Positions 15,878 through 57,888 of a stretch of DNA of 64,000 bases are shown here, in pieces. Each line of letters opens with the position of its first letter. The first letter of the stretch is position 1. The DNA is taken from the NCBI GenBank assembly GCA_030144725.1, contig JASKMD010000008.1, forward strand, positions 7,207,153-7,271,152. Direction: 5' to 3'. The stretch comes from Haematococcus lacustris (taxonomy: Eukaryota; Chlorophyta; Chlorophyceae; Chlamydomonadales; Haematococcaceae). The notes under the pieces were generated by a model. That model saw only the letters and a list, made by a program, of their open reading frames with translations. It searched no databases and was not told where the DNA came from. The translations under genes were made by a program, and so were the position numbers.

Positions 15878-15878
15878 G

Positions 15879-18311
15879 CTGTCCCCTCCATTCAGGACCC
15901 CACAGCTGCTGCTGCTGCTGCTGGGGCCGTCTGCCTGGGCGGCAGCGGCGGCCGCATCCAGGGTTTGCAGCCAGAGCAGGTGGGGGTCACTGAAGGCGCC
16001 CACCACCTCCAACTCTCCGCCCAGGATATCCCTGCGCTGGTCGTGACAACACATGGGGCAGGGAGGCCTTTAATGGCTGGATAGCTCACTAGCAGCAGAG
16101 GGCCACGGACGTCAGACAGAGATGGTGGCTTTGCTAATGCTGTTGTAGGAGATGGTGTTGATGATTGATGGTGTTGACACATGATGATGAGACATGTACC
16201 AGATGTCAGGCCACTAATGGTCAAACGTTTGACGTGCTGGCTTATGGACATGAGAATAGTGGGTGGGCAGCACGAATGCAACATAAGGCTCCCTGCTGCT
16301 GCGTCCTCCTGCCGTCCTCCTGCTGTCATCTCGCACTATCCCTGCCCACGATGGCTACGCTGCAAGCGTACCTGATCTCGGTGTTGACTTGAAGGCGTCC
16401 CTCCCGCACCTCCAGGCGCAGGTCTGGGCTGCGTAGCTCGGCATTCAGCTTCATCTCGTCGTCAGCTTGTGTCAGGGTGCGCATAAACGCACCTTCCCCC
16501 TCGATTGCCTTGGCCTCTTCCTCCTGCCTCCGGTGCAGCTTTTGGGCGGCTATGGCTGCGGCACGCCGCGCTACCGCGTCCTCGCCGTCTAGGACAAGGC
16601 TGCTGACGTGACGCATGCCGGACTCCGCAAGGGTTCGAGCTGTGTGCGCAGCCTCAGCAGCTTCTGTGGCCAAACCAGCCGCCCGCTCCTTGGCTTTGTC
16701 CACTGCCCCGCTCAAGCCCGCTGACGCTGCGTCGCCCTCATCAGTTGCTGACTCTGACGATGCCGCGCTTGCACCGCCATTCGCGCTTGCCGTATTTGTG
16801 CCGCCAAACGCATTCCCGGCATTGACGCTGTCCGTGGCCGGACGACTCGTGTCTGACGGTGTGTGCTGCGGGCGAGGGGGGCTGGACGAGCTGATGCCGT
16901 GCGCTTCCTCAAGCTTCTCTGCTTGCTGCAAAGCCTCCTCTGGCGCCTCCAAAGCCCCGGCCACCTCGAGGTACCGGATGATCCGGAAGTCCCGGGCGAC
17001 GGCACTGTATCCGCCGTTGATGACCGGGTTGTGCATGATCACGTGGTTGGGCGCGCCTGCAGCGTGGTGTGGTGCATCCCACTACCATCAGAGCGGTCAA
17101 GTGTAGTAGGAACCGGAGGAGCCCATGCACCACATGGTACAAAATGGTACATGTGCCATTACTACATGCAGACAAAACACCACCCTAATCCCGTGGGGCT
17201 ACCTGTGATCAGGCACATGTCACATGCAGGGTCGGTGGGCAGAGTGCAGTCATGCATGCAGCAGTTGATATGCATCGCCACTGTAATGGCATGGCTGACG
17301 GCGGCGTAGAGCACCTTGCATTGACAATGCTCACCCTGAAGTAGCTGAAAATAGCGTAAGATGGTATAAGTTGGCACAAGTTGGCATAAGCACGTAAGGA
17401 GTGGCTCAACTCACAGCACTGCATTCACGGCACTGAGATGGCATGGGCCTGCTGTGACAATGTGCAGATCGCAAAGCAGCCCCGCCAACCTGCTAGTGCC
17501 TTTCACCCTGCTCTCCAATAGCCACAACAGTATGCTGCAGGGCCACGTCTGCGTGCCTGCTCACAGGGCCTCACCCCGGTACAGCTGCCACAGGCTGCCA
17601 GTGCACTCCACATCCTGCACTGCCAGCAGCTGCTGCCCACCCCACTCTGGCGGCTCATGTACTGTCACGCCTTTGAGCCTGCGGGGCAGGCGTCCTCTGC
17701 CGGCTCAAACAAGCCAGGCTGCAAACCAGGGGCTGCTTGGCGTGGAGGCACACTAGCAGCCACAGGGCAACCAGGGGGTCAGGCATGCAGCAATTCAATA
17801 AGGAAGTCACAGAGAAGCTGGATGTAATGGCTGAATGCCACGTACGTAATGCTGCCGTGAAAGGGTCCTGACAGTGCCAGCTTCACATCAGCGATGGCCA
17901 CCTTGCCCGGCTGCAACGAGTTAACCAGGCTGACTACTGCTTGCAAGCCCAGCTGCGTGCTCAGCAGTGGAGGCAGCGCAGCCAAGGAGACACCTGCAGG
18001 AGATGACAAATGACGTGTGGGTGGCTGCCCTGCTGCCTGCCCGCTGACCTGGCAGGCAGGTGAGTCACTGTTTCACTGCCGCTACATTCCCCTCCCTCCC
18101 CTCCCTCACCCGTTACCACTACACCAGTGCCAAGCAGCTTCAGTGCGCGCAGCAAGCCGGGGGGCAGCTGTGAGGTGGACGCGCGGCCCGCTGCCGCCAG
18201 CGGGACGTGCACATAGCTCCTGACCCCAAAGACTGTCGTATGCACGCGTTCTGCCAAGAGCCATTGCTTCGCAGCGGACAAAGCCTTTGCTGCAAGGCGC
18301 GAGCGTGGCAT
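15879..18311 (-). pseudogene. AsmA/TamB-like gene, 5' part only (left-arm copy)
   Basis: Mirror of the first exons of the gene at 52351: 18110-18311, 17846-17993, 17575-17678, 16372-17056 and 15878-16031. The reading frames are intact up to the arm boundary, where the exon encoding a serine run and CGVLNGGDS is cut at 15878. Nothing after it matches the 3' exons of the full copy, which are present only at 54785-59798. If the scaffold is correct this is a truncated duplicate lacking about half the protein. If the arm boundary is an assembly join, the missing exons may simply lie elsewhere. Confidence 0.8.
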
Positions 18312-18821
18312 CCGCTTCGATTGCTGCTTTATTACGCTGTTGGCTTTACATACTGTTTGACAGCTCCTATTGCGATAGCGTCACTATGCGGGGGGCAAGG
18401 TCACTCATGTATGTGCTTCACGATGTAAGAGTTGCACGTCTTGTGAAGGGAGCTGAATGCCGACAGTGAAGGGAGCTGTATAGTGGTACTCCTTCCCCTT
18501 GGCAGATGACACATGGGAAGCAAACGGTGCAATGCTGGTTGCAAATCGGCATGAATGACAGCATGAATTGCGATTGGCGGAGATTGTCATTCATTCATCC
18601 CCGCTCGCCACGATGCACGCAGCTGTTGTGGCGCAGTTCGCGCTAATTCCATCTATTTTATCGTGGCTCCCATTTGCCATTGCTGAGCATCTTCTCAGCG
18701 AACTGGTCACATCGGGCAATGCAATGCAATGGTGTGGTGACACCTTCTGTTGTGTTGTGTCGTTGAGACAAAGTTGTTGTGTCGTTGTGTCGTTGAGTTA
18801 TAACGTTGAGTTGTGTCTAAT
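18312..18821. other. upstream region of AsmA-like copy, CAACGACA-type microsatellite
   Basis: It mirrors 51841-52350. It contains a degenerate GTTGTGTCGTTGAG repeat at about 18747-18815 just before element E1. Its last seven bases, GTCTAAT (18815-18821), are E1's target duplication. No coding exon seen. Confidence 0.5.
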
Positions 18822-20035
18822 TCGGGTGTTCCCAACTAACAGAAAATGACAGGAAACTGACCCTTGGCAGTCGGACGGCTGTAACTCTGCACTCACTGCG
18901 CCAAATGTTATGCTAAATGATTCACCATGTAGCCAACCCTGCCAGCTACCGTTCACCCATCCAGAATAATTATGCACGCAGTAGGTCGTGCACAGCAAAG
19001 CATCAAAGTTGGTGATTCAAATTCAAGCCGTTGCGGAGCATGCAGTCATCGCTACGACCGCCCGCGTCGCTTAGGCTGCTCTACACGAGCACGCGCGTCG
19101 GCAGCAACAGTCGGATCGGAGAACGATCACGGGATTGTTGCACCGGGCCCACCTCCCCCCCATACCTAGAGGGCAATGCCACAGCTCGACCATTTGGATT
19201 TACAGCATGCTACTTACTAGGTTAAGCTCATCTACGACACTGCTACAATCGCTCATACTCAGCTAAGCCGAAAGCTCACTTTGGTCGGTGACCCCCAACT
19301 CCCTTAGCCGATCTCGGGGCCAGGGCCATGCAGTCAGTCACACAGCTCCGCACCATGACCGATTTTTGACACGGCTCCTCTGAGAGTTATACTCCCCTAC
19401 ATGCCATCCACCTGCGTGCAAAGTTTCATAGCTCAACTGCCACCCCACAGCCCCGTGGCCCTCATTCTGCTTGGAGAACATGATGTCACTTTGAAGATGT
19501 CAATCTGATAGAGGCCTGGGCTGTTTAACGTGCGGTTTGTTCTAATAAACGCGCCAATGGGTCAAGAACAAACATTTTGTGGCCGTTTTCCTGTGGGTGC
19601 AACGGGTGCAACACAGTGGAGAACACAGTGGAGGAGGGGGGGTGTAAGCCGGGTGATACCTTAGTGTGCGCCACCCAGAAGGTGTAATCGGCGGAAGTGA
19701 GCACATCTATTATGTTTCATTCACCCCGTCTAGGCGCCCTGCACGCCCGGCAGGCATCGCGTTGGGTGTTGGCCGGACATTCCATTTGTGCACAACCAGC
19801 TCACTCCGCAAGGTAGATGGGGTCACGGGGATGTGGCTCACCGTGCCAAGGAGACCCGTCTCGCCGCTGTGATTTGTTCGAGGGCACATGTGGCAGTACG
19901 CGACCAAAGACTCCAATGGCTTGCGCTGATGGTCAAACGACGCGCATTGATTTGCAGCTGCCAATGTGACAAACGCTATTGAAAACGATGAGGTATCGAG
20001 AGAGTACTTGCATGACCCATGTTGGGAACGCCCGA
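18822..20035 (+). mobile_element. hAT-type non-autonomous element E1 (left arm)
   Basis: The 1214-bp element begins TCGGGTGTTCCCAAC and ends GTTGGGAACGCCCGA, flanked by GTCTAAT (18815-18821 and 20036-20042). No transposase is encoded. Its termini differ from those of A and B at two bases only, so it probably uses the same enzyme. E2 (29935-31149) is a second, diverged copy of the same length. Confidence 0.9.
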
Positions 20036-20146
20036 GTCTAATGAGATCAATGTGTCTGTCAGGCGTTCCCAACTACCTGAAAACCACCCCCCTGTGATAC
20101 GAAGCCCGTATCTCCGCAGCCACTCAGTCAAAAATATATGTAAACA

Positions 20147-20223
20147 GGTCACCCCCGCCATTGGCCCCGCAATTCACTTTTTGGCACCGTCTTTGATTTG
20201 CGGGGCCAATGGCGGGGGTGACC
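20147..20223 (+). mobile_element. transposon D, internally deleted 77-bp remnant
   Basis: Begins GGTCACCCCCGCCATTGG and ends with the inverse, 26-bp perfect terminal inverted repeats, with AACA/TGTT at both junctions (4-bp duplication). The right-arm copy is 1510 bp; here 1433 internal bases are missing, with only AT as microhomology at the deletion junction. Confidence 0.9.
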
Positions 20224-20795
20224 AACAGTGCTTTGAACAGAGGAGAGTCATATCTACGAAATGGCAGACGCAGCAAAAACTATCTCGCTCTCAGCGGTGC
20301 TCAGTGCCTGTCCAAAGATAAGCATTTGAATTCATGCGATTTCGCCACATGCGGGGCGCGCCGCACTAGCACGCTTCGCCACGCTGTTGTGAGTGGCACC
20401 TGCAACACGCAGCAGCAGTCGGAACATGTTTTGCTTTTGGCATGTGGACGCGACGACGGCAGTTGTGACGACTGGATACCACTATGAGCTTTTGGAGCTG
20501 CTGCTGGCGCTAGTGCATTACCGGCTGCTCTACTACGCTTAAACAAGGTGCTAGGTGCAGTACGTGGTGTTGTCTCACCTTGCTTTGCTGCCCTCGACTT
20601 GTTAGCTGCAGGTGCCCCACGCTCACGGGACGTGCTTGCCGCTGCCAGCTGTTGCTGCTGCTGAGGGGGTGCACCAGCAGGCTCAGCCAGCTCAGGGGTG
20701 GTGCCTGCAGGTGTCAGCTGCTGCTGAGGGGGCGCAGCTGCAGCAAGCTTCCCACGGATGTGGGTGCACACGTGGCTCAGGGTACCCTCCAGCTT

Positions 20796-20911
20796 GCCCC
20801 AGCCCCAGCCCCAGCCCCAGCCCCAGCCCCAGCCCCAGCCCCAGCTGCTGCCCCAGCCCCAGCCCCATCCCTTGCCCCAGCCCCAGCCCCAGCCCTTGCC
20901 CCAGCCCCACC
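20796..20911 (+). repeat. GGGCTG (CCCCAG) tract in element B
   Basis: Hexamer run read as CAGCCC on plus, interrupted by CTGCTG and TTG variants. Mirror at 48318-48433 has the same length. Confidence 0.9.
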
Positions 20912-22083
20912 ACCGGGTCTCTGCTCCCAGCCTTCTGGCAGGTGCTGCGGGGTGACTGCTGCTGTCACTCGCAATACGAGCACCTTGCCATGGCGATCGC
21001 ATGTGCACCCATCAAATTGCAGGTGTATTGCCTTTGCGCGCAATAGTTGGTCTGAAAGCAGGCAGCAGAGCAAAGACATGTGGTTATTCCCAGCCTCAGC
21101 CCCCCCTCAACCCTCCCCTCAGCCCCCCCTCCCACCCCCTACCACTCCCTTCCACCCCCTTCCACTCTCTCCCAGCCCCTTCCCACCCATGCCACCCTGC
21201 CTTCCCCTTTGCATCTTACCAAGGGTCTTGCGCCGCATGTAGGTGGACACGATGTGGAATTCACGCCCAACTGTGGATGTCTTGCCTGGCCGGTGAGGGT
21301 TGGGGAGGACGCACTGCTCAGAGACGAAGAACTGTCGGCACTTGGAGAGGGCACGGCGGCTGACACCTGTCTCTAGATGCAACCTGACGGTGCTCAAGCA
21401 GTGGTGAGCATTGTAGGGTGCAGTCCGGGCTGCTGGCCTCCCCACAGGGCTCTCTTGAGTTGGAATGAAGATGTCAGTTGGTGAGGGTGCTGGGCTGAGC
21501 TGCTCCCATAGCTGTAGCCATCAGCATGTGTACCTTGTAAGCGGTATAACTTGTCACATACAAACCCAATGATTGAGTTGCATAGTACCACGGACGCGTT
21601 AGTGAGTATGCTATAAAAAATCTGTGTGAGGTCAGGCTGTTTGTTCAATGGTGCAAAACATAAAGCGGATCATAGCTGGAGGGGGTGACTAGTCCTTACT
21701 GTGCCGCCCACCATTACAGCGATACAGCGCTGCCACACACAGTTTCGAGTTTCTTCACATCCTCGCCAAGCGGCCTGCACCATCAGGAACCTCGCGCAGC
21801 CATGTTTGCCGGACTTCAGTGGTGTGCGCCACCGACATGTCGTGCATCGCTAACGGATAGCCAAGGACGTAGCTTACCGGTGTAGCTAACCACGGTCTGC
21901 GATTGGGACACATTCGGGGTCACATGTGGCTGCCCGCATCGAAAGACTCCGATGGCAATTCCAGTCTTACATTAAACGCGCAATATCACATCGCAGCAGA
22001 CGCAACAAACGTTACATCAAAAGATTGAGTAGGTGGGCCGCAGTTGCATGAAGATTGCCAACCCCCTTGTTGGGAACGCCTGA

Positions 22084-22179
22084 GTGTCTGTGTTTGATTA
22101 CAAGTTGTAATACAACTCGTGCTTTACTTTGGTGTAGCATGGGGGCTGTAGGGATGCCAACGGCTGAGATGCAGCTAAG
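22084..22179 (-). pseudogene. short hAT transposase relic between elements B and C
   Basis: Read on the minus strand, the stretch with ATGCTACACCAAAGTAAAGC matches, with a few changes, the end of the element C transposase near 24070-24100. It is therefore a fragment of an older hAT copy, in opposite orientation, into which newer elements inserted. Confidence 0.65.
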
Positions 22180-22613
22180 TCAGGCGTTCCCAACATGGGG
22201 TTGGTAATCTTCATGCAACTGCGGCCCATCTACTCCATCATTTGATGTAACGTTTGCTGCGTCTGCTGCAATGCGATATTGCGCGTTTAATGTTCGACTG
22301 GAATTGCCATCGGAGTCTTTCGATGCGGGCAGCCACATGTGACCCCGGATGTGTCCCAATCGCAGACCGTGGTTAGCTACACTGGTAAGCTACGTCCTTG
22401 GCTATCCGTTAGCGATGCACGACATGTCGGTGGCGCACACCACTGAAGTCCGGCAAACATGGCTGCGCGAGCTTCTTGATGGTGCAGGCCGCATGGCGAG
22501 GATGTGAAGGAACCCCGGTTTGTGTGTGGCAGCGCTGTATCGCTGTAATGGTGGGCGGCACAGTAGGGACTAGTCACCCCCTCCAGCTATGATCCGCTTT
22601 ATGTTTTGGACCA

Positions 22614-24092
22614 TTGAACAAACAGCCTGACCTCACACATACCATTTGTAGCATACTCATTAACGCGTCCATGACACTATGCAACTCAATCATTGGGTTT
22701 GTATGTGACAAGTTATACCGCTTACAAGGTACACATGCTGATGGCTACAGGTGCACGAGGAGCCGACTGAGCTTGGCTTACCACTCCGCCACGTGGCCAC
22801 CACCAACACATCCTAACCCACCACCTCCCAACCTCGTCTACCCCGCCCAGCTCCCAGTAGCCCCTCCTCCCAGCCTGCCATCAGCCTCCTGCCCCCTAAC
22901 TCTCCTTCTCCCCGCCTCCTACCTCTCCCCTACCTCTCCTTCACCCATCTCCCCCCTACCTCTCCTTCACCCATCTCCGTATCCATCACCCCCCATCACC
23001 CTGACCACCGAGCCAAGCCATGGCAAGGTGCTCGTATTGCGAGTGACAGCAGCAGCCACCCCGCAGCACCTGTCAGAAGTCTGGGAGCAGAGGCCCGGTG
23101 GTGGGGCTGGGGCTGGGGCTAGGGCTGGGGCAGCAGCTGGGGCAGCAGCTGGGGCTGGGGCTGGGGCAGCAGATGGGGCTGGGGCTGGGGCTGGGGCTGG
23201 GGCTGGGGCTGGGGCTGGGGCTGGGGCTGGGGCTGGGGCTGGGGCTGGGGCTGGGGCAGGCCGACTCACCACCCAAGTCACTGATGTGTTGGCTATCATC
23301 CCCTTGCCTATTGGCACGGCAGAAGCTCATGTCCAGGTCATCATGCAGGAGCTGCTCCTCCACGGCCTCGACACTGCCTGCATCGCCAGCATCACAGCAG
23401 ACAGTGCAGCTGTGAACATGGGTGAATATGGTGGTGTTGTCACCCGCATGAGCAAGCTCCTGCAGAGCAAGGGGCAGGCTGGCTGCATTCGGGCGCAGCC
23501 CTGCTATAGCCACGGCATACTCAACACCCTGCTGGCTGGGCTGGCTGCATTGGGTGGTGACATCCGCCCAGCCATTGAATCCATTGCCAGCTTGCTGGCC
23601 CAGTATTGGGTGCCGCTCGGCATGGGAGCATGGGGCGCTAAGCCCCAAGTGCCGTGTGACACACGCTGGGCCAGCTACATCAGCTCAACTGTGACCATGC
23701 TGCGCGTCTGGGCGCATGCGAGAGATGCTGTGTCACAGCTGCTTGAGCGGCAGAAGGGTATGTCTCCACCATGGGCTGTCACCCTTAGCCAGCTGCTCCA
23801 AGACAACAGCCTGCTGCTCAGGCTCAGCGTGGTGGCAGTGGTTGGGGAGAGCTTCTTGGTGCCCGAGCTCATGTGGGCCAGATCACAGATCACAGATGCA
23901 GCGCACAAGGTCGGGAGGGTTGTGATTAATGTGGGTGACCATGCGTGCCAACAGCGGCTTGCAGCGGCCCATGCCCTTGCCTTAGCTGCTAAGGCCTTCC
24001 CCTGCATCCAGAATGCAGGATGGTACTTCAAAGCATGTGCAATCCAGCTCCTGAACCCCACAGCCCTCATGCTACACCAAAATAAAGCATGA
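22614..24092 (+). pseudogene. hAT transposase, truncated, with Gly-Ala repeat insert
   Basis: An open frame of 492 codons, but only about the last 300 are transposase-like. Motifs of the hAT RNase-H-like domain are visible: TAEAHVQVIMQELLLHGL, ITADSAAVNM (the D-x-x-x-x-N/M motif), the CYSHGILNTLL equivalent of the C-x-x-H motif, and CDTRWASYISSTVTMLRVW, the typical D-x-RW-x-S motif. The upstream catalytic FDG motif (present in element B) is replaced by a proline/serine-rich stretch joined at GKVLVLRV. A GGGCTG tract encodes a Gly-Ala run of about 50 residues inside the domain. The frame ends at HQNKA; a +1 frame continues HELELELAGELLAAG before stopping. The hATC dimerisation region is missing. 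Not expected to be active. Confidence 0.75.
23104..23258 (+). repeat. GGGCTG tract in element C, longer allele
   Basis: Hexamer run two units (12 bp) longer than its mirror at 45983-46125. This is the only length polymorphism of a simple repeat between the arms. Confidence 0.9.
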
Positions 24093-24321
24093 GTTGGAAT
24101 TGGAGTTGGCTGGCGAGCTTTTGGCGGCGGGGGTCAGGCAGCAATGCATCCCACCGGCTGGCCACCTGCAGCCACCTTGAACACAACCAAGGCACCTCAT
24201 CAGCTGGTGTAGGCAGCTGACAGCACACATGGCAGGCACAAGGCAGTTGACAGCACACAAGGCAGCTACCTGAGCACCATAGGCTGGTACCTTACTGCAA
24301 GGAGCACTCACCTTGCTGTTT

Positions 24322-25590
24322 TCAGGGCCCTTCAATGTAGTGGCCCGGCCTCGCTGGGTCAGGTAGGGCACCGTTCCTGAACTTGTCCAAGGAGGTGACC
24401 CCTGCCTCCGTTAGCACCTTCAACATGCCGGCGTCATGCATCAAGCCGTAGAGGCCCCGGGTGTCGATGAAGATGTGCCGAGCACGGCACTTGCTGGTGG
24501 GAGTGAGGGCATAGGGAGTGGGGGGGCGGGGGGGCCTCGTCGACAGGTTGGTGGGCTGAGACTGCTCCCAAGGCACCATATCCAGCTGCCAGGCTGCCAT
24601 GGCTGCCTCCATCTCTCTGGTGGTGTGCACCGCATGGCGCAGCAGCCGGCCACGGTTTGCAGGATCCTCCACCCAATCATGATCCACCTTCTCACCCTCC
24701 CCAAGCCCCAGTAGGCTCCGCTGCAAAGCCACCTCAGCCTGCATGGCTGCAGTCACCACAACGCCACCCTCCCGCAGTAGCCAGGTGACCTCCAAGCCGC
24801 ACACCATGCGGCGCACGTAGGTGCACTGCCGCTTGGACCAGGCTGGCAGGTGCCCATTAACCAGCCCCCTCACCCCGAATCGGCGCTGGTGCTCGTTGGT
24901 GCCCAGCAGGACCTTGGCCCCGGCCAGGGACACTGACTTCTTGAGCCTGCCAGCGAAGAGCAGGGTGAGCATGTTGCTGAAAGCGGTCTGCAGCTGCTGG
25001 CCGACGTTGTCCACCATGTTGGAATCAGACAGGTTGCGTGGGATAGCTTCGAGGCGGGCGCTAAGGTCGGGGTGCGCGGCCAGCACGGCAGCGACTGCTG
25101 CACTCGGCTGAGTGTTCTCGCCCTCTCCGGGCAGGCCGCGGCACAGCTGCAGGAACAGATTCCTGCAGCTCAGGTTCGGGATGTCTGCTGCGGAGACTGG
25201 GATGTCTGTGTCTGTGTATGACAGTGGCTGGCCTTGCGCGTCAAGCTGGTCGGCTACGTGCAGGGTAAACAAGTCGCGCACGAGGAAGCCCAACAGCAGG
25301 CTGCCAACCACCCCCCGCTCGCTTATGGCCTTCACTCGTGGGCGCACAGCCTTGTCAAGGAAGGCGTCCCAATGCGCTTGCGGGAGGTGGTCGATGAGGT
25401 GTGCTAACTTGGCCTTTCTTGCGTGGAACGTATTGCCCCTGCTGCGGGCAGCACGGGCCTCTCCTGAAGCCTTCCTTTTACGCTGCGCCTCGGTCAAGTC
25501 GGGTTGGCCTGCCTCGTCGCGGTTGAAGTCGGGGTCCTCCGGCACTGCTCTAGGCCCACCCACACCGGTTCGTCTCTTCTTCCTCGCCAT
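24322..25590 (-). CDS. putative Fanzor/TnpB-like protein, N-terminal half
   Basis: The frame is open further upstream, but the first convincing Met is at 25590, giving a basic start MARKKRRTGVGGP and 422 codons. The middle has helix-rich segments (HWDAFLDKAVRPRVKAISER, VVGSLLLGFLVRDLF) and RQCTYVRRMVCGLEVTWLL. The end reads RHIFIDTRGLYGLMHDAGML and stops at GHYIEGP. By memory this resembles the N-terminal (WED/REC-like) half of green-algal Fanzor proteins, eukaryotic relatives of TnpB RNA-guided nucleases. That is inference. The RuvC half with DRDxNAA is absent here; a -1 shift past the stop reads PENSK into a GTGAGT donor, so the true gene was probably spliced and is now broken. It converges tail-to-tail on the element C transposase. 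One residue differs from the mirror copy (N to K at 25033/44208). Confidence 0.5.
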   Translation of the reverse strand: MARKKRRTGVGGPRAVPEDPDFNRDEAGQPDLTEAQRKRKASGEARAARSRGNTFHARKAKLAHLIDHLPQAHWDAFLDKAVRPRVKAISERGVVGSLLLGFLVRDLFTLHVADQLDAQGQPLSYTDTDIPVSAADIPNLSCRNLFLQLCRGLPGEGENTQPSAAVAAVLAAHPDLSARLEAIPRNLSDSNMVDNVGQQLQTAFSNMLTLLFAGRLKKSVSLAGAKVLLGTNEHQRRFGVRGLVNGHLPAWSKRQCTYVRRMVCGLEVTWLLREGGVVVTAAMQAEVALQRSLLGLGEGEKVDHDWVEDPANRGRLLRHAVHTTREMEAAMAAWQLDMVPWEQSQPTNLSTRPPRPPTPYALTPTSKCRARHIFIDTRGLYGLMHDAGMLKVLTEAGVTSLDKFRNGALPDPARPGHYIEGP

Positions 25591-25885
25591 AAACAATAGC
25601 AACGCGAGGCAGCAACATATACTAAGGATTATCGTGTTTGTCACACACATGTACACACATTTTCCCTGCAGTCCTGAATGTGCAATCCAGACACTCCTCT
25701 TAACAGCGACTTTCACCGTTAGTGCCGGCGCGCCATCCAATGATGATAGTGCGGTGTCGATGTGGTGAGCAGCAGCACTGTGCGCAGAAGTCAGTTTGAG
25801 GCGCGCTCACTGACACTTGGAATGCAATGCAGGGCCTAAGCCAGCTCAGCATGCAGGACGCACTCGAAAGCCAATGTGCTTACAG

Positions 25886-31149: not shown

Positions 31150-31282
31150 GTTGGATACTGACCATTGGCCGCCGGAGCTGCCATCCAGCAGCTGGAGATG
31201 TCAGCTCTTTGCCCATGCGTCATGGGATGCTCAGAGATGCTGGTTCCTACACAGCTTTGGTAGTAGAGGATGAAAAGGTTTC

Positions 31283-32254: not shown

Positions 32255-32349
32255 GTGCGCCGTGAGACATCCATTTGGGACATTCCCATTCACACTTGCA
32301 TGCTTGCATGCTTGCACAGTGAGCACACAGGCAAGCACCTCCCATACAT

Positions 32350-35090: not shown

Positions 35091-35194
35091 GGTCTGGCAG
35101 GGGTCTAGGCATGCGCTGTGAACATGTGTTTGACACAGGCTACTATAAACGGCCAGCAGCAACAGACTGCATAGACAGACTGCATAGACAGACA

Positions 35195-43355: not shown

Positions 43356-43650
43356 CTGTAAGCACATTGGCTTTCGAGTGCGTCCTGCATGCTGAGCTGG
43401 CTTAGGCCCTGCATTGCATTCCAAGTGTCAGTGAGCGCGCCTCAAACTGACTTCTGCGCACAGTGCTGCTGCTCACCACATCGACACCGCACTATCATCA
43501 TTGGATGGCGCGCCGGCACTAACGGTGAAAGTCGCTGTTAAGAGGAGTGTCTGGATTGCACATTCAGGACTGCAGGGAAAATGTGTGTACATGTGTGTGA
43601 CAAACACGATAATCCTTAGTATATGTTGCTGCCTCGCGTTGCTATTGTTT

Positions 43651-44919
43651 ATGGCGAGGAAGAAGAGACGAACCGGTGTGGGTGGGCCTAGAGCAGTGCC
43701 GGAGGACCCCGACTTCAACCGCGACGAGGCAGGCCAACCCGACTTGACCGAGGCGCAGCGTAAAAGGAAGGCTTCAGGAGAGGCCCGTGCTGCCCGCAGC
43801 AGGGGCAATACGTTCCACGCAAGAAAGGCCAAGTTAGCACACCTCATCGACCACCTCCCGCAAGCGCATTGGGACGCCTTCCTTGACAAGGCTGTGCGCC
43901 CACGAGTGAAGGCCATAAGCGAGCGGGGGGTGGTTGGCAGCCTGCTGTTGGGCTTCCTCGTGCGCGACTTGTTTACCCTGCACGTAGCCGACCAGCTTGA
44001 CGCGCAAGGCCAGCCACTGTCATACACAGACACAGACATCCCAGTCTCCGCAGCAGACATCCCGAACCTGAGCTGCAGGAATCTGTTCCTGCAGCTGTGC
44101 CGCGGCCTGCCCGGAGAGGGCGAGAACACTCAGCCGAGTGCAGCAGTCGCTGCCGTGCTGGCCGCGCACCCCGACCTTAGCGCCCGCCTCGAAGCTATCC
44201 CACGCAAACTGTCTGATTCCAACATGGTGGACAACGTCGGCCAGCAGCTGCAGACCGCTTTCAGCAACATGCTCACCCTGCTCTTCGCTGGCAGGCTCAA
44301 GAAGTCAGTGTCCCTGGCCGGGGCCAAGGTCCTGCTGGGCACCAACGAGCACCAGCGCCGATTCGGGGTGAGGGGGCTGGTTAATGGGCACCTGCCAGCC
44401 TGGTCCAAGCGGCAGTGCACCTACGTGCGCCGCATGGTGTGCGGCTTGGAGGTCACCTGGCTACTGCGGGAGGGTGGCGTTGTGGTGACTGCAGCCATGC
44501 AGGCTGAGGTGGCTTTGCAGCGGAGCCTACTGGGGCTTGGGGAGGGTGAGAAGGTGGATCATGATTGGGTGGAGGATCCTGCAAACCGTGGCCGGCTGCT
44601 GCGCCATGCGGTGCACACCACCAGAGAGATGGAGGCAGCCATGGCAGCCTGGCAGCTGGATATGGTGCCTTGGGAGCAGTCTCAGCCCACCAACCTGTCG
44701 ACGAGGCCCCCCCGCCCCCCCACTCCCTATGCCCTCACTCCCACCAGCAAGTGCCGTGCTCGGCACATCTTCATCGACACCCGGGGCCTCTACGGCTTGA
44801 TGCATGACGCCGGCATGTTGAAGGTGCTAACGGAGGCAGGGGTCACCTCCTTGGACAAGTTCAGGAACGGTGCCCTACCTGACCCAGCGAGGCCGGGCCA
44901 CTACATTGAAGGGCCCTGA
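43651..44919 (+). CDS. putative Fanzor/TnpB-like N-terminal half (right copy)
   Basis: Mirror of the minus-strand ORF at 24322-25590, with the same length and the same stop after GHYIEGP. It reads PRKLSD where the left copy has PRNLSD. An in-frame stop at the same place in both copies shows the break is older than the palindrome. Confidence 0.5.
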   Translation: MARKKRRTGVGGPRAVPEDPDFNRDEAGQPDLTEAQRKRKASGEARAARSRGNTFHARKAKLAHLIDHLPQAHWDAFLDKAVRPRVKAISERGVVGSLLLGFLVRDLFTLHVADQLDAQGQPLSYTDTDIPVSAADIPNLSCRNLFLQLCRGLPGEGENTQPSAAVAAVLAAHPDLSARLEAIPRKLSDSNMVDNVGQQLQTAFSNMLTLLFAGRLKKSVSLAGAKVLLGTNEHQRRFGVRGLVNGHLPAWSKRQCTYVRRMVCGLEVTWLLREGGVVVTAAMQAEVALQRSLLGLGEGEKVDHDWVEDPANRGRLLRHAVHTTREMEAAMAAWQLDMVPWEQSQPTNLSTRPPRPPTPYALTPTSKCRARHIFIDTRGLYGLMHDAGMLKVLTEAGVTSLDKFRNGALPDPARPGHYIEGP

Positions 44920-45055
44920 AAACAGCAAGGTGAGTGCTCCTTGCAGTAAGGTACCAGCCTATGGTGCTCAGGTAGCTGCCTTGTGTGCTGTCAACTGCCT
45001 TGTGCCTGCCATGTGTGCTGTCAGCTGCCTACACCAGCTGATGAGGTGCCTTGGT

Positions 45056-47049
45056 TGTGTTCAAGGTGGCTGCAGGTGGCCAGCCGGTGGGATGCATTGC
45101 TGCCTGACCCCCGCCGCCAAAAGCTCGCCAGCCAACTCCAATTCCAACTCATGCTTTATTTTGGTGTAGCATGAGGGCTGTGGGGTTCAGGAGCTGGATT
45201 GCACATGCTTTGAAGTACCATCCTGCATTCTGGATGCAGGGGAAGGCCTTAGCAGCTAAGGCAAGGGCATGGGCCGCTGCAAGCCGCTGTTGGCACGCAT
45301 GGTCACCCACATTAATCACAACCCTCCCGACCTTGTGCGCTGCATCTGTGATCTGTGATCTGGCCCACATGAGCTCGGGCACCAAGAAGCTCTCCCCAAC
45401 CACTGCCACCACGCTGAGCCTGAGCAGCAGGCTGTTGTCTTGGAGCAGCTGGCTAAGGGTGACAGCCCATGGTGGAGACATACCCTTCTGCCGCTCAAGC
45501 AGCTGTGACACAGCATCTCTCGCATGCGCCCAGACGCGCAGCATGGTCACAGTTGAGCTGATGTAGCTGGCCCAGCGTGTGTCACACGGCACTTGGGGCT
45601 TAGCGCCCCATGCTCCCATGCCGAGCGGCACCCAATACTGGGCCAGCAAGCTGGCAATGGATTCAATGGCTGGGCGGATGTCACCACCCAATGCAGCCAG
45701 CCCAGCCAGCAGGGTGTTGAGTATGCCGTGGCTATAGCAGGGCTGCGCCCGAATGCAGCCAGCCTGCCCCTTGCTCTGCAGGAGCTTGCTCATGCGGGTG
45801 ACAACACCACCATATTCACCCATGTTCACAGCTGCACTGTCTGCTGTGATGCTGGCGATGCAGGCAGTGTCGAGGCCGTGGAGGAGCAGCTCCTGCATGA
45901 TGACCTGGACATGAGCTTCTGCCGTGCCAATAGGCAAGGGGATGATAGCCAACACATCAGTGACTTGGGTGGTGAGTCGGCCTGCCCCAGCCCCAGCCCC
46001 AGCCCCAGCCCCAGCCCCAGCCCCAGCCCCAGCCCCAGCCCCAGCCCCAGCCCCATCTGCTGCCCCAGCCCCAGCCCCAGCTGCTGCCCCAGCTGCTGCC
46101 CCAGCCCTAGCCCCAGCCCCAGCCCCACCACCGGGCCTCTGCTCCCAGACTTCTGACAGGTGCTGCGGGGTGGCTGCTGCTGTCACTCGCAATACGAGCA
46201 CCTTGCCATGGCTTGGCTCGGTGGTCAGGGTGATGGGGGGTGATGGATACGGAGATGGGTGAAGGAGAGGTAGGGGGGAGATGGGTGAAGGAGAGGTAGG
46301 GGAGAGGTAGGAGGCGGGGAGAAGGAGAGTTAGGGGGCAGGAGGCTGATGGCAGGCTGGGAGGAGGGGCTACTGGGAGCTGGGCGGGGTAGACGAGGTTG
46401 GGAGGTGGTGGGTTAGGATGTGTTGGTGGTGGCCACGTGGCGGAGTGGTAAGCCAAGCTCAGTCGGCTCCTCGTGCACCTGTAGCCATCAGCATGTGTAC
46501 CTTGTAAGCGGTATAACTTGTCACATACAAACCCAATGATTGAGTTGCATAGTGTCATGGACGCGTTAATGAGTATGCTACAAATGGTATGTGTGAGGTC
46601 AGGCTGTTTGTTCAATGGTCCAAAACATAAAGCGGATCATAGCTGGAGGGGGTGACTAGTCCCTACTGTGCCGCCCACCATTACAGCGATACAGCGCTGC
46701 CACACACAAACCGGGGTTCCTTCACATCCTCGCCATGCGGCCTGCACCATCAAGAAGCTCGCGCAGCCATGTTTGCCGGACTTCAGTGGTGTGCGCCACC
46801 GACATGTCGTGCATCGCTAACGGATAGCCAAGGACGTAGCTTACCAGTGTAGCTAACCACGGTCTGCGATTGGGACACATCCGGGGTCACATGTGGCTGC
46901 CCGCATCGAAAGACTCCGATGGCAATTCCAGTCGAACATTAAACGCGCAATATCGCATTGCAGCAGACGCAGCAAACGTTACATCAAATGATGGAGTAGA
47001 TGGGCCGCAGTTGCATGAAGATTACCAACCCCATGTTGGGAACGCCTGA
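45056..47049 (-). mobile_element. hAT element C (right copy)
   Basis: Mirror of 22180-24185, with its terminus TCAGGCG read inward from 47049. The other end is again absent. A mirror of the older hAT relic (47050-47145) separates it from element B. Confidence 0.75.
45149..46615 (-). pseudogene. hAT transposase, truncated (right copy)
   Basis: 488 codons. Identical to the left copy except for four fewer Gly-Ala residues in the GGGCTG tract (45983-46125). The same DTRW and ADSAAVNM motifs and the same missing N- and C-terminal parts. Confidence 0.75.
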
Positions 47050-47145
47050 CTTAGCTGCATCTCAGCCGTTGGCATCCCTACAGCCCCCATGCTACACCAA
47101 AGTAAAGCACGAGTTGTATTACAACTTGTAATCAAACACAGACAC

Positions 47146-50100
47146 TCAGGCGTTCCCAACAAGGGGGTTGGCAATCTTCATGCAACTGCGGCCCACCTAC
47201 TCAATCTTTTGATGTAACGTTTGTTGCGTCTGCTGCGATGTGATATTGCGCGTTTAATGTAAGACTGGAATTGCCATCGGAGTCTTTCGATGCGGGCAGC
47301 CACATGTGACCCCGAATGTGTCCCAATCGCAGACCGTGGTTAGCTACACCGGTAAGCTACGTCCTTGGCTATCCGTTAGCGATGCACGACATGTCGGTGG
47401 CGCACACCACTGAAGTCCGGCAAACATGGCTGCGCGAGGTTCCTGATGGTGCAGGCCGCTTGGCGAGGATGTGAAGAAACTCGAAACTGTGTGTGGCAGC
47501 GCTGTATCGCTGTAATGGTGGGCGGCACAGTAAGGACTAGTCACCCCCTCCAGCTATGATCCGCTTTATGTTTTGCACCATTGAACAAACAGCCTGACCT
47601 CACACAGATTTTTTATAGCATACTCACTAACGCGTCCGTGGTACTATGCAACTCAATCATTGGGTTTGTATGTGACAAGTTATACCGCTTACAAGGTACA
47701 CATGCTGATGGCTACAGCTATGGGAGCAGCTCAGCCCAGCACCCTCACCAACTGACATCTTCATTCCAACTCAAGAGAGCCCTGTGGGGAGGCCAGCAGC
47801 CCGGACTGCACCCTACAATGCTCACCACTGCTTGAGCACCGTCAGGTTGCATCTAGAGACAGGTGTCAGCCGCCGTGCCCTCTCCAAGTGCCGACAGTTC
47901 TTCGTCTCTGAGCAGTGCGTCCTCCCCAACCCTCACCGGCCAGGCAAGACATCCACAGTTGGGCGTGAATTCCACATCGTGTCCACCTACATGCGGCGCA
48001 AGACCCTTGGTAAGATGCAAAGGGGAAGGCAGGGTGGCATGGGTGGGAAGGGGCTGGGAGAGAGTGGAAGGGGGTGGAAGGGAGTGGTAGGGGGTGGGAG
48101 GGGGGGCTGAGGGGAGGGTTGAGGGGGGGCTGAGGCTGGGAATAACCACATGTCTTTGCTCTGCTGCCTGCTTTCAGACCAACTATTGCGCGCAAAGGCA
48201 ATACACCTGCAATTTGATGGGTGCACATGCGATCGCCATGGCAAGGTGCTCGTATTGCGAGTGACAGCAGCAGTCACCCCGCAGCACCTGCCAGAAGGCT
48301 GGGAGCAGAGACCCGGTGGTGGGGCTGGGGCAAGGGCTGGGGCTGGGGCTGGGGCAAGGGATGGGGCTGGGGCTGGGGCAGCAGCTGGGGCTGGGGCTGG
48401 GGCTGGGGCTGGGGCTGGGGCTGGGGCTGGGGCAAGCTGGAGGGTACCCTGAGCCACGTGTGCACCCACATCCGTGGGAAGCTTGCTGCAGCTGCGCCCC
48501 CTCAGCAGCAGCTGACACCTGCAGGCACCACCCCTGAGCTGGCTGAGCCTGCTGGTGCACCCCCTCAGCAGCAGCAACAGCTGGCAGCGGCAAGCACGTC
48601 CCGTGAGCGTGGGGCACCTGCAGCTAACAAGTCGAGGGCAGCAAAGCAAGGTGAGACAACACCACGTACTGCACCTAGCACCTTGTTTAAGCGTAGTAGA
48701 GCAGCCGGTAATGCACTAGCGCCAGCAGCAGCTCCAAAAGCTCATAGTGGTATCCAGTCGTCACAACTGCCGTCGTCGCGTCCACATGCCAAAAGCAAAA
48801 CATGTTCCGACTGCTGCTGCGTGTTGCAGGTGCCACTCACAACAGCGTGGCGAAGCGTGCTAGTGCGGCGCGCCCCGCATGTGGCGAAATCGCATGAATT
48901 CAAATGCTTATCTTTGGACAGGCACTGAGCACCGCTGAGAGCGAGATAGTTTTTGCTGCGTCTGCCATTTCGTAGATATGACTCTCCTCTGTTCAAAGCA
49001 CTGTTGGTCACCCCCGCCATTGGCCCCGCAAATGTGAGACGGTCTGGGGCGCGAATCTCAGTGAAGCTCGCGACAAAGTTTTGACGCAGACGGGTGTAAC
49101 AGGTGTATGCGGCACCCACCGTCCGCAAAACACTAGCTCAGATCGGCGCCCGCCCAAACCTGACCTGTGCTTTCCGCCTCTAAAAGACTCACGCGCATCA
49201 TAAAGCGAGGCTGCCAATCCTTCTACGCACGCCGTAAGCCAACGGCACAAGTGCAGTACGCCTGCTTGCATGTCAGTGCATGGAGCATATAATTGGTGAA
49301 TATGCGCACATATCAGCCAGCTGGCACCCCTTACCTCACTGACGTTGCGGCATGACTCTATGCAAATTTAAGCTGCCTTATGACAGCGCCACATCATCAC
49401 TTGGCGATATGTTGTCGGGATGGCTCGGGATGGCTCTGGCTTTCAGTGTTACATGTGCCGTGGTGCCTCAACCCTCTTCCTCAACTTCAGCAGGCACATG
49501 TCACGCAAAATCATTACAGAAATACATGTATCGATGCTCAAACGCCTTGCAACACCACTACAGAAGACATGTATCGCTGATGCCAAGCACATGCATTGAT
49601 GTAAGAAGGTGGCAACACCACACAACACAACAACACCTCAACAACACACCACCACCACCACAACACAATGACTTATGCCTCACACACCACCTATGCTATG
49701 TGCACAACAAGCAAGGACTGGCTGCACCTCCTTGCTATAGCTAACACTCACTACGGGACTGCTAAGCACCTTGCCTTGCTGCCTATGCCCCATGGCACCA
49801 AATCAGGCTGGGCTGGGCTGGGCTGGGCACTGGTATCTTTTGGATGGCATCCTGCAGCAAAATACCCATAACCATGTCAGGCCCACATAAGAGACATTAC
49901 CTATCAGGAACAATGCATGAAAATCAGGTTGGGGACTGCTGTGTGCTTCCCTCAGCTGTTCATGCCTGTCATGCGTTGCGCAAGTGTGCGCGTGAACATC
50001 AAACTGACCTAGACAAGGTGAGGTAAATTACAACCTTACTCACCTCTTGCTCACTGTTTTCAAGAGCTGATCCCCTTGCTGCACTCCTGCTTGGAAGACC

Positions 50101-50603
50101 CTTGGGCTGCTGTGGGTTTGATGCTGATCCTCAAAACAGCCAAGCACCTGTGGAGGTCAGCAGATTTGGTTGCATGTAATGACATTGTATGCAAAACGCA
50201 CTAAGAAACAGCACCCCGTGCTTGCCTGGGAAGTAATCGCGACTTGCCAGTCCGATGGCAGCAAAGGCTGCTCGGCGCGGAAATGCCTCCGGCCACCAAT
50301 TCATCTCTCCTGTTGCGACACGCATATAAACAGATAGAGAATGGCATTGCGAAGCTAATCATGTCGTTGAGACAGTGCAGTACAATCGACAAAAGAGGGC
50401 CTAACCTGCTAGCGACACCGTTGTGAGATGTAGAGCCCAATGGTAGAAGAATTACATGCAGCGGATCAAAGACGGTGCCAAAAAGTGAATTGCGGGGCCA
50501 ATGGCGGGGGTGACCTGTTTACATATATTTTTGACTGAGTGGCTGCGGAGATACGGGCTTCGTATCACAGGGGGGTGGTTTTCAGGTAGTTGGGAACGCC
50601 TGA
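47146..50603 (+). mobile_element. element B (right copy) carrying full-length transposon D
   Basis: Same termini as the left copy, with CAGACAC on both sides (47139-47145 and 50604-50610). On the plus strand the transposase-like exons read ETGVSRRALSK...STYMRRKTL (ending about 48008 at GTAAGA) and, after a CTTTCAG acceptor, DQLLRAKAIHLQFDGCTCDR. The element is 3458 bp because of the 1510-bp D insertion. Confidence 0.85.
49006..50515 (+). mobile_element. transposon D, 1510-bp copy
   Basis: 26-bp perfect terminal inverted repeats starting GGTCACCCCCGCC, flanked by TGTT (49002-49005 and 50516-50519). Element A at 4713-4745 shows the uninterrupted target with one TGTT. The interior holds no recognisable transposase. 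One frame at 49844-50026 (with TMSGPHKRHYLSGTM) could be a captured exon. Non-autonomous, superfamily not assigned; a 4-bp duplication fits few superfamilies. Confidence 0.9.
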
Positions 50604-50626
50604 CAGACACATTGATCTCATTAGAC

Positions 50627-51840
50627 TCGGGCGTTCCCAACATGGGTCATGCAAGTACTCTCTCGATACCTCATCGTTTTCAATAGCGTTTGTCACATTG
50701 GCAGCTGCAAATCAATGCGCGTCGTTTGACCATCAGCGCAAGCCATTGGAGTCTTTGGTCGCGTACTGCCACATGTGCCCTCGAACAAATCACAGCGGCG
50801 AGACGGGTCTCCTTGGCACGGTGAGCCACATCCCCGTGACCCCATCTACCTTGCGGAGTGAGCTGGTTGTGCACAAATGGAATGTCCGGCCAACACCCAA
50901 CGCGATGCCTGCCGGGCGTGCAGGGCGCCTAGACGGGGTGAATGAAACATAATAGATGTGCTCACTTCCGCCGATTACACCTTCTGGGTGGCGCACACTA
51001 AGGTATCACCCGGCTTACACCCCCCCTCCTCCACTGTGTTCTCCACTGTGTTGCACCCGTTGCACCCACAGGAAAACGGCCACAAAATGTTTGTTCTTGA
51101 CCCATTGGCGCGTTTATTAGAACAAACCGCACGTTAAACAGCCCAGGCCTCTATCAGATTGACATCTTCAAAGTGACATCATGTTCTCCAAGCAGAATGA
51201 GGGCCACGGGGCTGTGGGGTGGCAGTTGAGCTATGAAACTTTGCACGCAGGTGGATGGCATGTAGGGGAGTATAACTCTCAGAGGAGCCGTGTCAAAAAT
51301 CGGTCATGGTGCGGAGCTGTGTGACTGACTGCATGGCCCTGGCCCCGAGATCGGCTAAGGGAGTTGGGGGTCACCGACCAAAGTGAGCTTTCGGCTTAGC
51401 TGAGTATGAGCGATTGTAGCAGTGTCGTAGATGAGCTTAACCTAGTAAGTAGCATGCTGTAAATCCAAATGGTCGAGCTGTGGCATTGCCCTCTAGGTAT
51501 GGGGGGGAGGTGGGCCCGGTGCAACAATCCCGTGATCGTTCTCCGATCCGACTGTTGCTGCCGACGCGCGTGCTCGTGTAGAGCAGCCTAAGCGACGCGG
51601 GCGGTCGTAGCGATGACTGCATGCTCCGCAACGGCTTGAATTTGAATCACCAACTTTGATGCTTTGCTGTGCACGACCTACTGCGTGCATAATTATTCTG
51701 GATGGGTGAACGGTAGCTGGCAGGGTTGGCTACATGGTGAATCATTTAGCATAACATTTGGCGCAGTGAGTGCAGAGTTACAGCCGTCCGACTGCCAAGG
51801 GTCAGTTTCCTGTCATTTTCTGTTAGTTGGGAACACCCGA
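50627..51840 (-). mobile_element. element E1 (right copy)
   Basis: Mirror of 18822-20035 with ATTAGAC on both sides (50620-50626 and 51841-51847). Confidence 0.9.
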
Positions 51841-52350
51841 ATTAGACACAACTCAACGTTATAACTCAACGACACAACGACACAACAACTTTGTCTCAAC
51901 GACACAACACAACAGAAGGTGTCACCACACCATTGCATTGCATTGCCCGATGTGACCAGTTCGCTGAGAAGATGCTCAGCAATGGCAAATGGGAGCCACG
52001 ATAAAATAGATGGAATTAGCGCGAACTGCGCCACAACAGCTGCGTGCATCGTGGCGAGCGGGGATGAATGAATGACAATCTCCGCCAATCGCAATTCATG
52101 CTGTCATTCATGCCGATTTGCAACCAGCATTGCACCGTTTGCTTCCCATGTGTCATCTGCCAAGGGGAAGGAGTACCACTATACAGCTCCCTTCACTGTC
52201 GGCATTCAGCTCCCTTCACAAGACGTGCAACTCTTACATCGTGAAGCACATACATGAGTGACCTTGCCCCCCGCATAGTGACGCTATCGCAATAGGAGCT
52301 GTCAAACAGTATGTAAAGCCAACAGCGTAATAAAGCAGCAATCGAAGCGG

Positions 52351-55300
52351 ATGCCACGCTCGCGCCTTGCAGCAAAGGCTTTGTCCGCTGCGAAGCAATG
52401 GCTCTTGGCAGAACGCGTGCATACGACAGTCTTTGGGGTCAGGAGCTATGTGCACGTCCCGCTGGCGGCAGCGGGCCGCGCGTCCACCTCACAGCTGCCC
52501 CCCGGCTTGCTGCGCGCACTGAAGCTGCTTGGCACTGGTGTAGTGGTAACGGGTGAGGGAGGGGAGGGAGGGGAATGTAGCGGCAGTGAAACAGTGACTC
52601 ACCTGCCTGCCAGGTCAGCGGGCAGGCAGCAGGGCAGCCACCCACACGTCATTTGTCATCTCCTGCAGGTGTCTCCTTGGCTGCGCTGCCTCCACTGCTG
52701 AGCACGCAGCTGGGCTTGCAAGCAGTAGTCAGCCTGGTTAACTCGTTGCAGCCGGGCAAGGTGGCCATCGCTGATGTGAAGCTGGCACTGTCAGGACCCT
52801 TTCACGGCAGCATTACGTACGTGGCATTCAGCCATTACATCCAGCTTCTCTGTGACTTCCTTATTGAATTGCTGCATGCCTGACCCCCTGGTTGCCCTGT
52901 GGCTGCTAGTGTGCCTCCACGCCAAGCAGCCCCTGGTTTGCAGCCTGGCTTGTTTGAGCCGGCAGAGGACGCCTGCCCCGCAGGCTCAAAGGCGTGACAG
53001 TACATGAGCCGCCAGAGTGGGGTGGGCAGCAGCTGCTGGCAGTGCAGGATGTGGAGTGCACTGGCAGCCTGTGGCAGCTGTACCGGGGTGAGGCCCTGTG
53101 AGCAGGCACGCAGACGTGGCCCTGCAGCATACTGTTGTGGCTATTGGAGAGCAGGGTGAAAGGCACTAGCAGGTTGGCGGGGCTGCTTTGCGATCTGCAC
53201 ATTGTCACAGCAGGCCCATGCCATCTCAGTGCCGTGAATGCAGTGCTGTGAGTTGAGCCACTCCTTACGTGCTTATGCCAACTTGTGCCAACTTATACCA
53301 TCTTACGCTATTTTCAGCTACTTCAGGGTGAGCATTGTCAATGCAAGGTGCTCTACGCCGCCGTCAGCCATGCCATTACAGTGGCGATGCATATCAACTG
53401 CTGCATGCATGACTGCACTCTGCCCACCGACCCTGCATGTGACATGTGCCTGATCACAGGTAGCCCCACGGGATTAGGGTGGTGTTTTGTCTGCATGTAG
53501 TAATGGCACATGTACCATTTTGTACCATGTGGTGCATGGGCTCCTCCGGTTCCTACTACACTTGACCGCTCTGATGGTAGTGGGATGCACCACACCACGC
53601 TGCAGGCGCGCCCAACCACGTGATCATGCACAACCCGGTCATCAACGGCGGATACAGTGCCGTCGCCCGGGACTTCCGGATCATCCGGTACCTCGAGGTG
53701 GCCGGGGCTTTGGAGGCGCCAGAGGAGGCTTTGCAGCAAGCAGAGAAGCTTGAGGAAGCGCACGGCATCAGCTCGTCCAGCCCCCCTCGCCCGCAGCACA
53801 CACCGTCAGACACGAGTCGTCCGGCCACGGACAGCGTCAATGCCGGGAATGCGTTTGGCGGCACAAATACGGCAAGCGCGAATGGCGGTGCAAGCGCGGC
53901 ATCGTCAGAGTCAGCAACTGATGAGGGCGACGCAGCGTCAGCGGGCTTGAGCGGGGCAGTGGACAAAGCCAAGGAGCGGGCGGCTGGTTTGGCCACAGAA
54001 GCTGCTGAGGCTGCGCACACAGCTCGAACCCTTGCGGAGTCCGGCATGCGTCACGTCAGCAGCCTTGTCCTAGACGGCGAGGACGCGGTAGCGCGGCGTG
54101 CCGCAGCCATAGCCGCCCAAAAGCTGCACCGGAGGCAGGAGGAAGAGGCCAAGGCAATCGAGGGGGAAGGTGCGTTTATGCGCACCCTGACACAAGCTGA
54201 CGACGAGATGAAGCTGAATGCCGAGCTACGCAGCCCAGACCTGCGCCTGGAGGTGCGGGAGGGACGCCTTCAAGTCAACACCGAGATCAGGTACGCTTGC
54301 AGCGTAGCCATCGTGGGCAGGGATAGTGCGAGATGACAGCAGGAGGACGGCAGGAGGACGCAGCAGCAGGGAGCCTTATGTTGCATTCGTGCTGCCCACC
54401 CACTATTCTCATGTCCATAAGCCAGCACGTCAAACGTTTGACCATTAGTGGCCTGACATCTGGTACATGTCTCATCATCATGTGTCAACACCATCAATCA
54501 TCAACACCATCTCCTACAACAGCATTAGCAAAGCCACCATCTCTGTCTGACGTCCGTGGCCCTCTGCTGCTAGTGAGCTATCCAGCCATTAAAGGCCTCC
54601 CTGCCCCATGTGTTGTCACGACCAGCGCAGGGATATCCTGGGCGGAGAGTTGGAGGTGGTGGGCGCCTTCAGTGACCCCCACCTGCTCTGGCTGCAAACC
54701 CTGGATGCGGCCGCCGCTGCCGCCCAGGCAGACGGCCCCAGCAGCAGCAGCAGCAGCTGTGGGGTCCTGAATGGAGGGGACAGCAGCAGGGGAGCAGGCA
54801 GCAGCAGCAGTGGAGGCGGGCAAGCTGGGGGGTCAAGGTGGTGGCATGACCAGCCCCAGCATCCAGTCAGCGCCCACAGGCTTCAGAGGGTGAAGGAGAC
54901 TGAGGGAGGCAAGGCCCGATGCACACCGGGGGAGTGGAGGGTAGGTCAGTGCCTGGGCAGGGCTGGGCTGGGCTGGGCTAGAACAGCTTCCCTGACCCTC
55001 CCTCACACTTCTGTCACCCTCCCTCGCCCCCATCAGTGTTGTTCCCAACCCTTTACGTAGTACAGGTAGCAGGGCTGGGCTCGTCTGCGGGTGGAAGATG
55101 GCCCTTCGTATCATACACACACACATATATAGACACGCTGTGACCCTCCACATGCATTCTCTATGTCAACATCATGGCAGCGCCATGGCTGTGTGGCAAG
55201 CCCAAGGCTCTGTCTGCACAGCGATATGTCTGTTCCCCTGCTGGCCCTTGCTCCTGCTCCCCTGCAGCTGACAGCTCCCAACCTAGACATGCGCATGAGG

Positions 55301-57853: not shown

Positions 57854-57888
<35 letters not shown>

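What the first reader, a model, noticed from the sequence alone, without database searches (positions are those of the whole stretch)
15878..54784. Giant near-identical palindrome: 16-kb arms, 1.9-kb spacer
Arms 15878-31826 and 33756-54784 are reverse complements, with three substitutions noticed and a length difference fully accounted for by three events. Such long, nearly identical inverted repeats are rare in nuclear genomes and would be kept alike by gene conversion or be very recent. The alternative is two haplotypes joined head to head in assembly.
Basis: seen in the sequence. Interest (0 to 1): 0.85.

Follow-up and report, generated by a model that had tools for sequence, protein, structure and literature searches.

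The report
Recent inverted duplication in an alga
A stretch of about 16 kb of the nuclear genome of the green alga Haematococcus is present twice, head to head and almost letter-identical; it looks like one recent chromosome-repair duplication rather than two parental copies glued together by the assembler, although only the raw reads can prove it.

Summary
The palindrome is in the sequence at the stated coordinates. The DNA is from Haematococcus lacustris. The arms are 99.975% identical, whereas alleles of this diploid alga differ by about 1.5% in the one strain measured, so two haplotypes joined head to head is unlikely. A gene crosses the right outer edge, and a single protein of another Haematococcus assembly spans the same edge: the right arm is the original locus, the left a truncated inverted copy. 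The spacer holds one exon of a peptidase S49 (SppA-type) gene without its neighbours, as expected of a repair junction with copied filler. The left outer edge cannot be judged: a 500-N gap lies 462 bp away. Best reading: a recent fold-back or template-switch inverted duplication, hit afterwards by a transposon. Gene conversion is not needed. New member of a known kind; no reads were available.

The parts
14916..15415 (.). 500-N scaffold gap; the contig with the palindrome starts at 15416
15416..15877 (.). 462 bp of unknown sequence between the gap and the left arm; no BLAST match elsewhere in the window
15878..31826 (+). left arm (15,949 bp): the inverted, truncated copy
   Evidence: carries only the first exons of the boundary gene
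31827..33755 (+). spacer (1,929 bp), not repeated elsewhere in the window
32145..32255 (+). single exon (37 aa) of a peptidase S49 / SppA-type gene, identical to Haematococcus proteins P0125 and P0126; neighbouring exons absent from the window
33756..54784 (-). right arm (21,029 bp): the original copy, continuous with the right flank
34549..38207 (.). DNA transposon (about 3.65 kb) in the right arm only: 17-bp perfect terminal inverted repeats, 7-8-bp target duplication CTGGCTG(T); intact empty site in the left arm at 31033/31034
49032..50464 (.). 1,433-bp stretch present in the right arm only; 2-bp microhomology (AT), no target duplication: deletion from the left arm or insertion into the right arm
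23246..23257 (+). two extra 6-bp units in the left-arm array
31282..31363 (-). tRNA-Leu(CAG), left copy, 463 bp from the inner edge
34219..34300 (+). tRNA-Leu(CAG), right copy; one base differs from the left copy
52668..59795 (+). gene of unknown function crossing the right outer edge (54784): exons at 52668-52817, 52985-53089, 53605 onward, 55262-55414, 55810-55947, 56194-56310, 57709-58005, 59082-59795
   Evidence: P0113 and P0124
16824..17994 (-). first exons of the same gene in the left arm; the copy is cut off before the exons that lie beyond 54784 on the right

Best explanation
A genuine, recent inverted segmental duplication in the nuclear genome of Haematococcus lacustris. Shown from sequence: the right arm with its right flank is the original locus, because one gene runs across that edge and one protein of another Haematococcus assembly spans it; the left arm is an inverted copy that carries only the start of that gene; the arms are 99.975% identical; the 1.9-kb spacer contains one exon of an unrelated peptidase S49 (SppA-type) gene; a transposon with a clean target duplication sits in the right arm only, with its empty site intact in the left arm. 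Inferred: a broken chromosome end or stalled fork was repaired by copying about 1.9 kb, at least partly from the SppA-type locus, and then back along the arm (of the sister chromatid or itself) in the opposite direction, i.e. fold-back or template-switch repair; the transposon landed afterwards. Gene conversion is not required. With the Chlamydomonas incerta mutation rate, four substitutions correspond to about 1.7e5 cell divisions (Poisson range about 4.5e4 to 4.2e5).
For: Four substitutions in 15,937 sites; allelic heterozygosity 1.5% overall and 1.65% average per scaffold in strain K-0084, so about 239 would be expected between alleles, Poisson probability of 4 or fewer about 2e-96. HaLaN_25725 (P0113, on a 13,383-bp contig) maps to 52668-53838 inside the arm and to 55262-56310 in the flank. 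P0124 extends the gene to 59795. The SppA-type exon matches 37 of 37 residues of P0125 and P0126, ends in a splice-donor-like GT and has no neighbouring exon in the window. Transposon termini, target duplication and empty site. The one substitution that could be polarised is derived on the right: K there, against H 35, Y 7, N 4, Q 1, K 0 in 47 relatives; the left has N. The arms differ at least every 4.3 kb, far less than the 16.6-kb mean HiFi read of the presumed source assembly, so an assembler could tell them apart and one read could span left arm, spacer and the transposon in the right arm. A 1,929-bp spacer lies in the 766-70,466 bp range of 21 sequenced human fold-back junctions (PMC3907307 passages).
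Against: No read, depth or optical-map evidence was available. The contig starts 462 bp outside the left arm next to a 500-N gap, so the left junction has no confirmed far side, and no mirror of the right flank was found left of the gap, only 40-bp and 27-bp matches, so how far the copy extends is unknown. The inner 10 kb of the right arm and both inner edges have no independent sequence. Heterozygosity comes from another strain. No inverted microhomology could be scored because the unrearranged inner locus is not in hand. That the window belongs to the HiFi assembly PRJNA964479 is inferred, not shown. No protein tagged QJQ45 matched the boundary gene (candidate lengths were limited).
Confidence: 0.66

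Rival explanations
1. Assembly artefact: the two haplotypes of one locus, or collapsed and chimeric reads, were joined head to head through the spacer.
For: Haematococcus K-0084 is diploid and an unpurged assembly showed over 74% duplicated BUSCO genes. The presumed source assembly is 316 Mb against 151 Mb collapsed, so it probably keeps haplotype copies. The left outer edge sits beside a scaffold gap. Presence or absence of transposons is typical of alleles.
Against: Divergence 0.025% against 1.5% allelic. The spacer has no N and carries an exon of another gene, which a join of two alleles does not predict. A single fold-back read cannot give arms that differ by a transposon with target duplication and four substitutions. 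Local loss of heterozygosity could still make alleles this similar.
Confidence: 0.22
2. An older palindrome whose arms are kept alike by arm-to-arm gene conversion, like the palindromes of sex chromosomes.
For: Size and architecture match the willow W.P1 palindrome (42.7 kb with a 2.6-kb spacer; PMC7023750 passages), and identity matches human Y palindrome P6 (99.97%; PMC3723533 passages).
Against: Nothing shows age: no relative with the palindrome, no fixed differences to compare. The one polarised substitution and the transposon remain confined to one arm. One arm carries a cut-off gene copy. Recent origin explains the identity alone.
Confidence: 0.08
3. A large mobile element with giant terminal inverted repeats.
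For: Long arms and a short middle part.
Against: The arm is continuous with a host gene that runs past its outer edge, and no Pfam family was matched by the two spacer ORFs tested beyond one weak sub-threshold hit. An element would end at the arm edge.
Confidence: 0.02

Closest known systems
Fold-back inverted duplications with a short single-copy spacer (human structural variants; PMC3907307, passages seen)
   Same: Two inverted copies, short spacer of the same order (1.9 kb against a median of 3.4 kb), one copy native and one truncated; insertions copied from elsewhere are known at some such junctions.
   Different: There the spacer is native sequence next to the arm and the duplications are huge and near chromosome ends; here the spacer contains an exon from another gene, and the duplication seen is at least 16 kb.
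Sex-chromosome palindromes: willow W.P1 (PMC7023750) and human Y P6 (PMC3723533), passages seen
   Same: Scale, spacer length and arm identity; transposon insertions private to one arm also occur in willow.
   Different: No link to a sex or mating locus, no evidence of gene conversion or of age, and no complete gene was shown to be duplicated in both arms apart from a tRNA-Leu.
Haplotype duplication artefacts in diploid assemblies
   Same: Diploid host and a presumed source assembly about twice the collapsed size.
   Different: Arms about 60 times more alike than alleles, inverted within one gap-free contig, and with a foreign exon in the middle.

Membership tests
Fold-back / template-switch inverted duplication | Two inverted copies separated by a short spacer, one copy contiguous with native flank | tested here: met
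   1,929-bp spacer; boundary gene continuous on the right, cut off on the left
Fold-back / template-switch inverted duplication | Spacer is native sequence next to the arm (classical fold-back) or copied from elsewhere (template switching) | tested here: inconclusive
   isolated SppA-type exon favours copying from elsewhere for at least part of the spacer; the unrearranged locus is not in hand
Fold-back / template-switch inverted duplication | Short inverted microhomology at the junction | not testable with these tools
   needs the unrearranged inner locus
Gene-conversion-maintained palindrome | Arms over 99.9% identical | tested here: met
   99.975%, also expected of a recent duplication
Gene-conversion-maintained palindrome | Arms more alike within a genome than their age predicts | not testable with these tools
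   no second strain's DNA of the locus was available
Haplotype join in assembly | Arm divergence in the range of allelic heterozygosity | tested here: not met
   4 of 15,937 sites against 1.5% in strain K-0084; another strain, so not conclusive
Haplotype join in assembly | No reads across the spacer and single-copy depth over the arms | not testable with these tools
   no reads held

The most novel reading that the evidence does not exclude
A young palindrome in a diploid green alga made by replication template switching that picked up an exon from an SppA-type gene as its hinge, in the process of becoming a gene-conversion palindrome (possibly in a recombination-poor or mating-related region), caught with one transposon insertion as a time marker.
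Probability: 0.07. Interest if true: 0.7.

Novelty: new member of a known kind. Interest (0 to 1): 0.36.

Why it matters
Long palindromes are mostly known from sex chromosomes and tumours, where their beginnings are hard to see. Here a very young one can be read with original copy, derived copy and hinge, in an alga that divides mitotically in culture. It also warns that copy-number claims from this alga's unpurged assemblies need depth checks.

Tried and rejected
Organism: identified by proteins; all 120 hits listed (of 149) are named Haematococcus lacustris. QJQ45 contig lengths equal chromosome lengths in Bian et al. 2023, but the window itself was not shown to lie in that assembly; that 3D-DNA writes 500-N gaps is recalled. 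That the tag HaLaN means strain NIES-144 and V8C86DRAFT a JGI assembly is recalled.

Mirror of the right flank left of the gap: not found; 54785-64000 against 1-14915 gives only 40-bp and 27-bp matches, and nothing against 15416-15877. Rfam found only the two tRNAs.

Boundary gene function: no Pfam or NCBIfam family above cut-off; one sub-threshold PDB hit, E 0.69. The exon-only search in the PDB gave one hit, E 0.071, not used.

Transposon-like ORF in the arms: I suspected a Fanzor-type nuclease from motifs recalled in full-length relatives; a PDB profile search gave only hexokinase at E 0.07 and no Pfam match, so it stays a lead.

Helitron for the 1,433-bp stretch: rejected, no CTRR-type end (my reading; motif recalled). 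A stray 7-residue match of SppA-type protein P0126 at 36136 was taken as chance.

Literature: nine searches. In one search, 15 of 1,265 papers were listed and none was, by title, about a nuclear palindrome in Haematococcus; that is weak evidence of absence.

Full report
What is there. The window contains an inverted repeat with arms 15878-31826 and 33756-54784 and a 1,929-bp spacer. Aligned over 15,937 sites the arms differ by four substitutions, one 12-bp array change, and two stretches present only in the right arm. Other non-tandem self-matches of at least 150 bp are 87.6-96.0% identical, the arm blocks 99.75-100%.

Whose DNA. A protein search with an arm ORF (494 aa) gave 149 relatives; all 120 listed are named Haematococcus lacustris. 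Two chromosome-scale assemblies are published. One is from strain SAG 192.80: HiFi reads of mean 16.6 kb, hifiasm, 3D-DNA, 316 Mb (PMC10400597, parts 1 and 2 of 3 read). The other is from K-0084, 151 Mb after purging, with 1.5% heterozygosity (1.65% scaffold average) and evidence for diploidy (PMC7617258, abstract, sections 2.7, 3.1, 3.2 and passages). The window most likely comes from the first, but that is inference.

Not ordinary alleles. At 1.5% about 239 differences are expected in 15,937 sites; four are seen, Poisson probability about 2e-96; even at 0.1% it would be 4e-4. The authors of PMC7617258 themselves note that features may be strain specific, and local loss of heterozygosity could mimic this, so the argument is strong but not final.

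Which arm is original. Protein P0113 (HaLaN_25725, on a 13,383-bp contig) maps to exons at 52668-52817, 52985-53089 and from 53605 inside the right arm, then to 55262-55414, 55810-55947 and 56194-56310 outside it. P0124 (V8C86DRAFT_1691080) begins in exon 55289 and continues to 59795, so it confirms the flank part but does not cross the edge. P0113 also includes 44224-44547, part of the transposon-like ORF, so about 12 kb of right arm and flank is collinear with that contig. The left arm holds the mirrored first exons (17994 to 16824) and stops at 15878.

The spacer. It encodes on the + strand 37 residues identical to proteins P0125 and P0126, the latter matching Peptidase_S49. The exon is followed by GT and begins at CAG. 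No other exon of P0126 was found in the window by tblastn or exact 7-residue words; one stray word at 36136 was taken as chance. The spacer is thus at least partly DNA from another gene. P0125 and P0126 lie on contigs of 41,509 and 161,729 bp, the boundary gene on contigs of 13,383 and 622,853 bp, so in those assemblies the two genes are on different contigs.

After the duplication. The 3.65-kb element in the right arm has 17-bp perfect terminal inverted repeats and a 7-8-bp target duplication, and its empty site is intact in the left arm. The 1,433-bp difference has only a 2-bp microhomology, so its direction is open. One substitution lies in the transposon-like ORF: left N, right K; of 47 relatives with the motif (of 123 records) 35 have H, 7 Y, 4 N, 1 Q and none K, so the right base is derived. 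Another lies in the tRNA-Leu(CAG) and does not change the predicted fold or energy. With 7.6e-10 mutations per site and division (Chlamydomonas incerta, PMC8383909 abstract) four substitutions mean about 1.65e5 divisions, 4.5e4 to 4.2e5.

Mechanism. Human inverted duplications formed by fold-back have spacers of 766-70,466 bp, median 3,428, in 21 of 21 sequenced junctions, and five of the 21 carry insertions (PMC3907307 passages). A 1,929-bp spacer fits. In classical fold-back the spacer is native; the isolated exon argues for template switching to another locus or for an insert captured during repair. The tRNA-Leu genes lie 463 bp from the inner edges; that such genes can stall forks is recalled, and their part here is speculation.

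Limits. No reads, depth or whole genome could be examined: the same own-genome search was left unanswered ten times. The left outer edge may be a transposon end, a second breakpoint or a contig end; 462 bp of sequence outside it match nothing in the window. No mirror of the right flank was found left of the gap.

Known kinds. Willow W.P1 spans 42.7 kb with a 2.6-kb spacer (PMC7023750 passages); human P6 arms are 99.97% alike (PMC3723533 passages). The present case resembles them in form, but no test here shows gene conversion, age or sex linkage. It is filed as a new member of the known kind 'recent inverted segmental duplication'.

Noticed in passing
24325-25806 (-) and 43435-44916 (+): A 494-aa piece of a high-copy transposon-like protein; full-length relatives (about 730-800 aa) carry motifs that I recall from Fanzor/TnpB-type nucleases, and the window copy lacks that C-terminal part. 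A PDB profile search and Pfam did not confirm it.
   Followed up: partly
58353-59082: 730-bp array of the 6-bp unit TGACCC (about 122 copies, 96% matches) between exons of the boundary gene.
   Followed up: no
9903-14228: Left contig holds pieces of a DNA-repair metallo-beta-lactamase, a TATA-binding protein and a TFIIS-type zinc ribbon protein.
   Followed up: no
63014-63886: Weak staphylococcal-nuclease-domain match at the right end of the window.
   Followed up: no
18813-20015 and 29966-31158: A 1.2-kb inverted repeat family, 88% alike, occurs twice within each arm.
   Followed up: no
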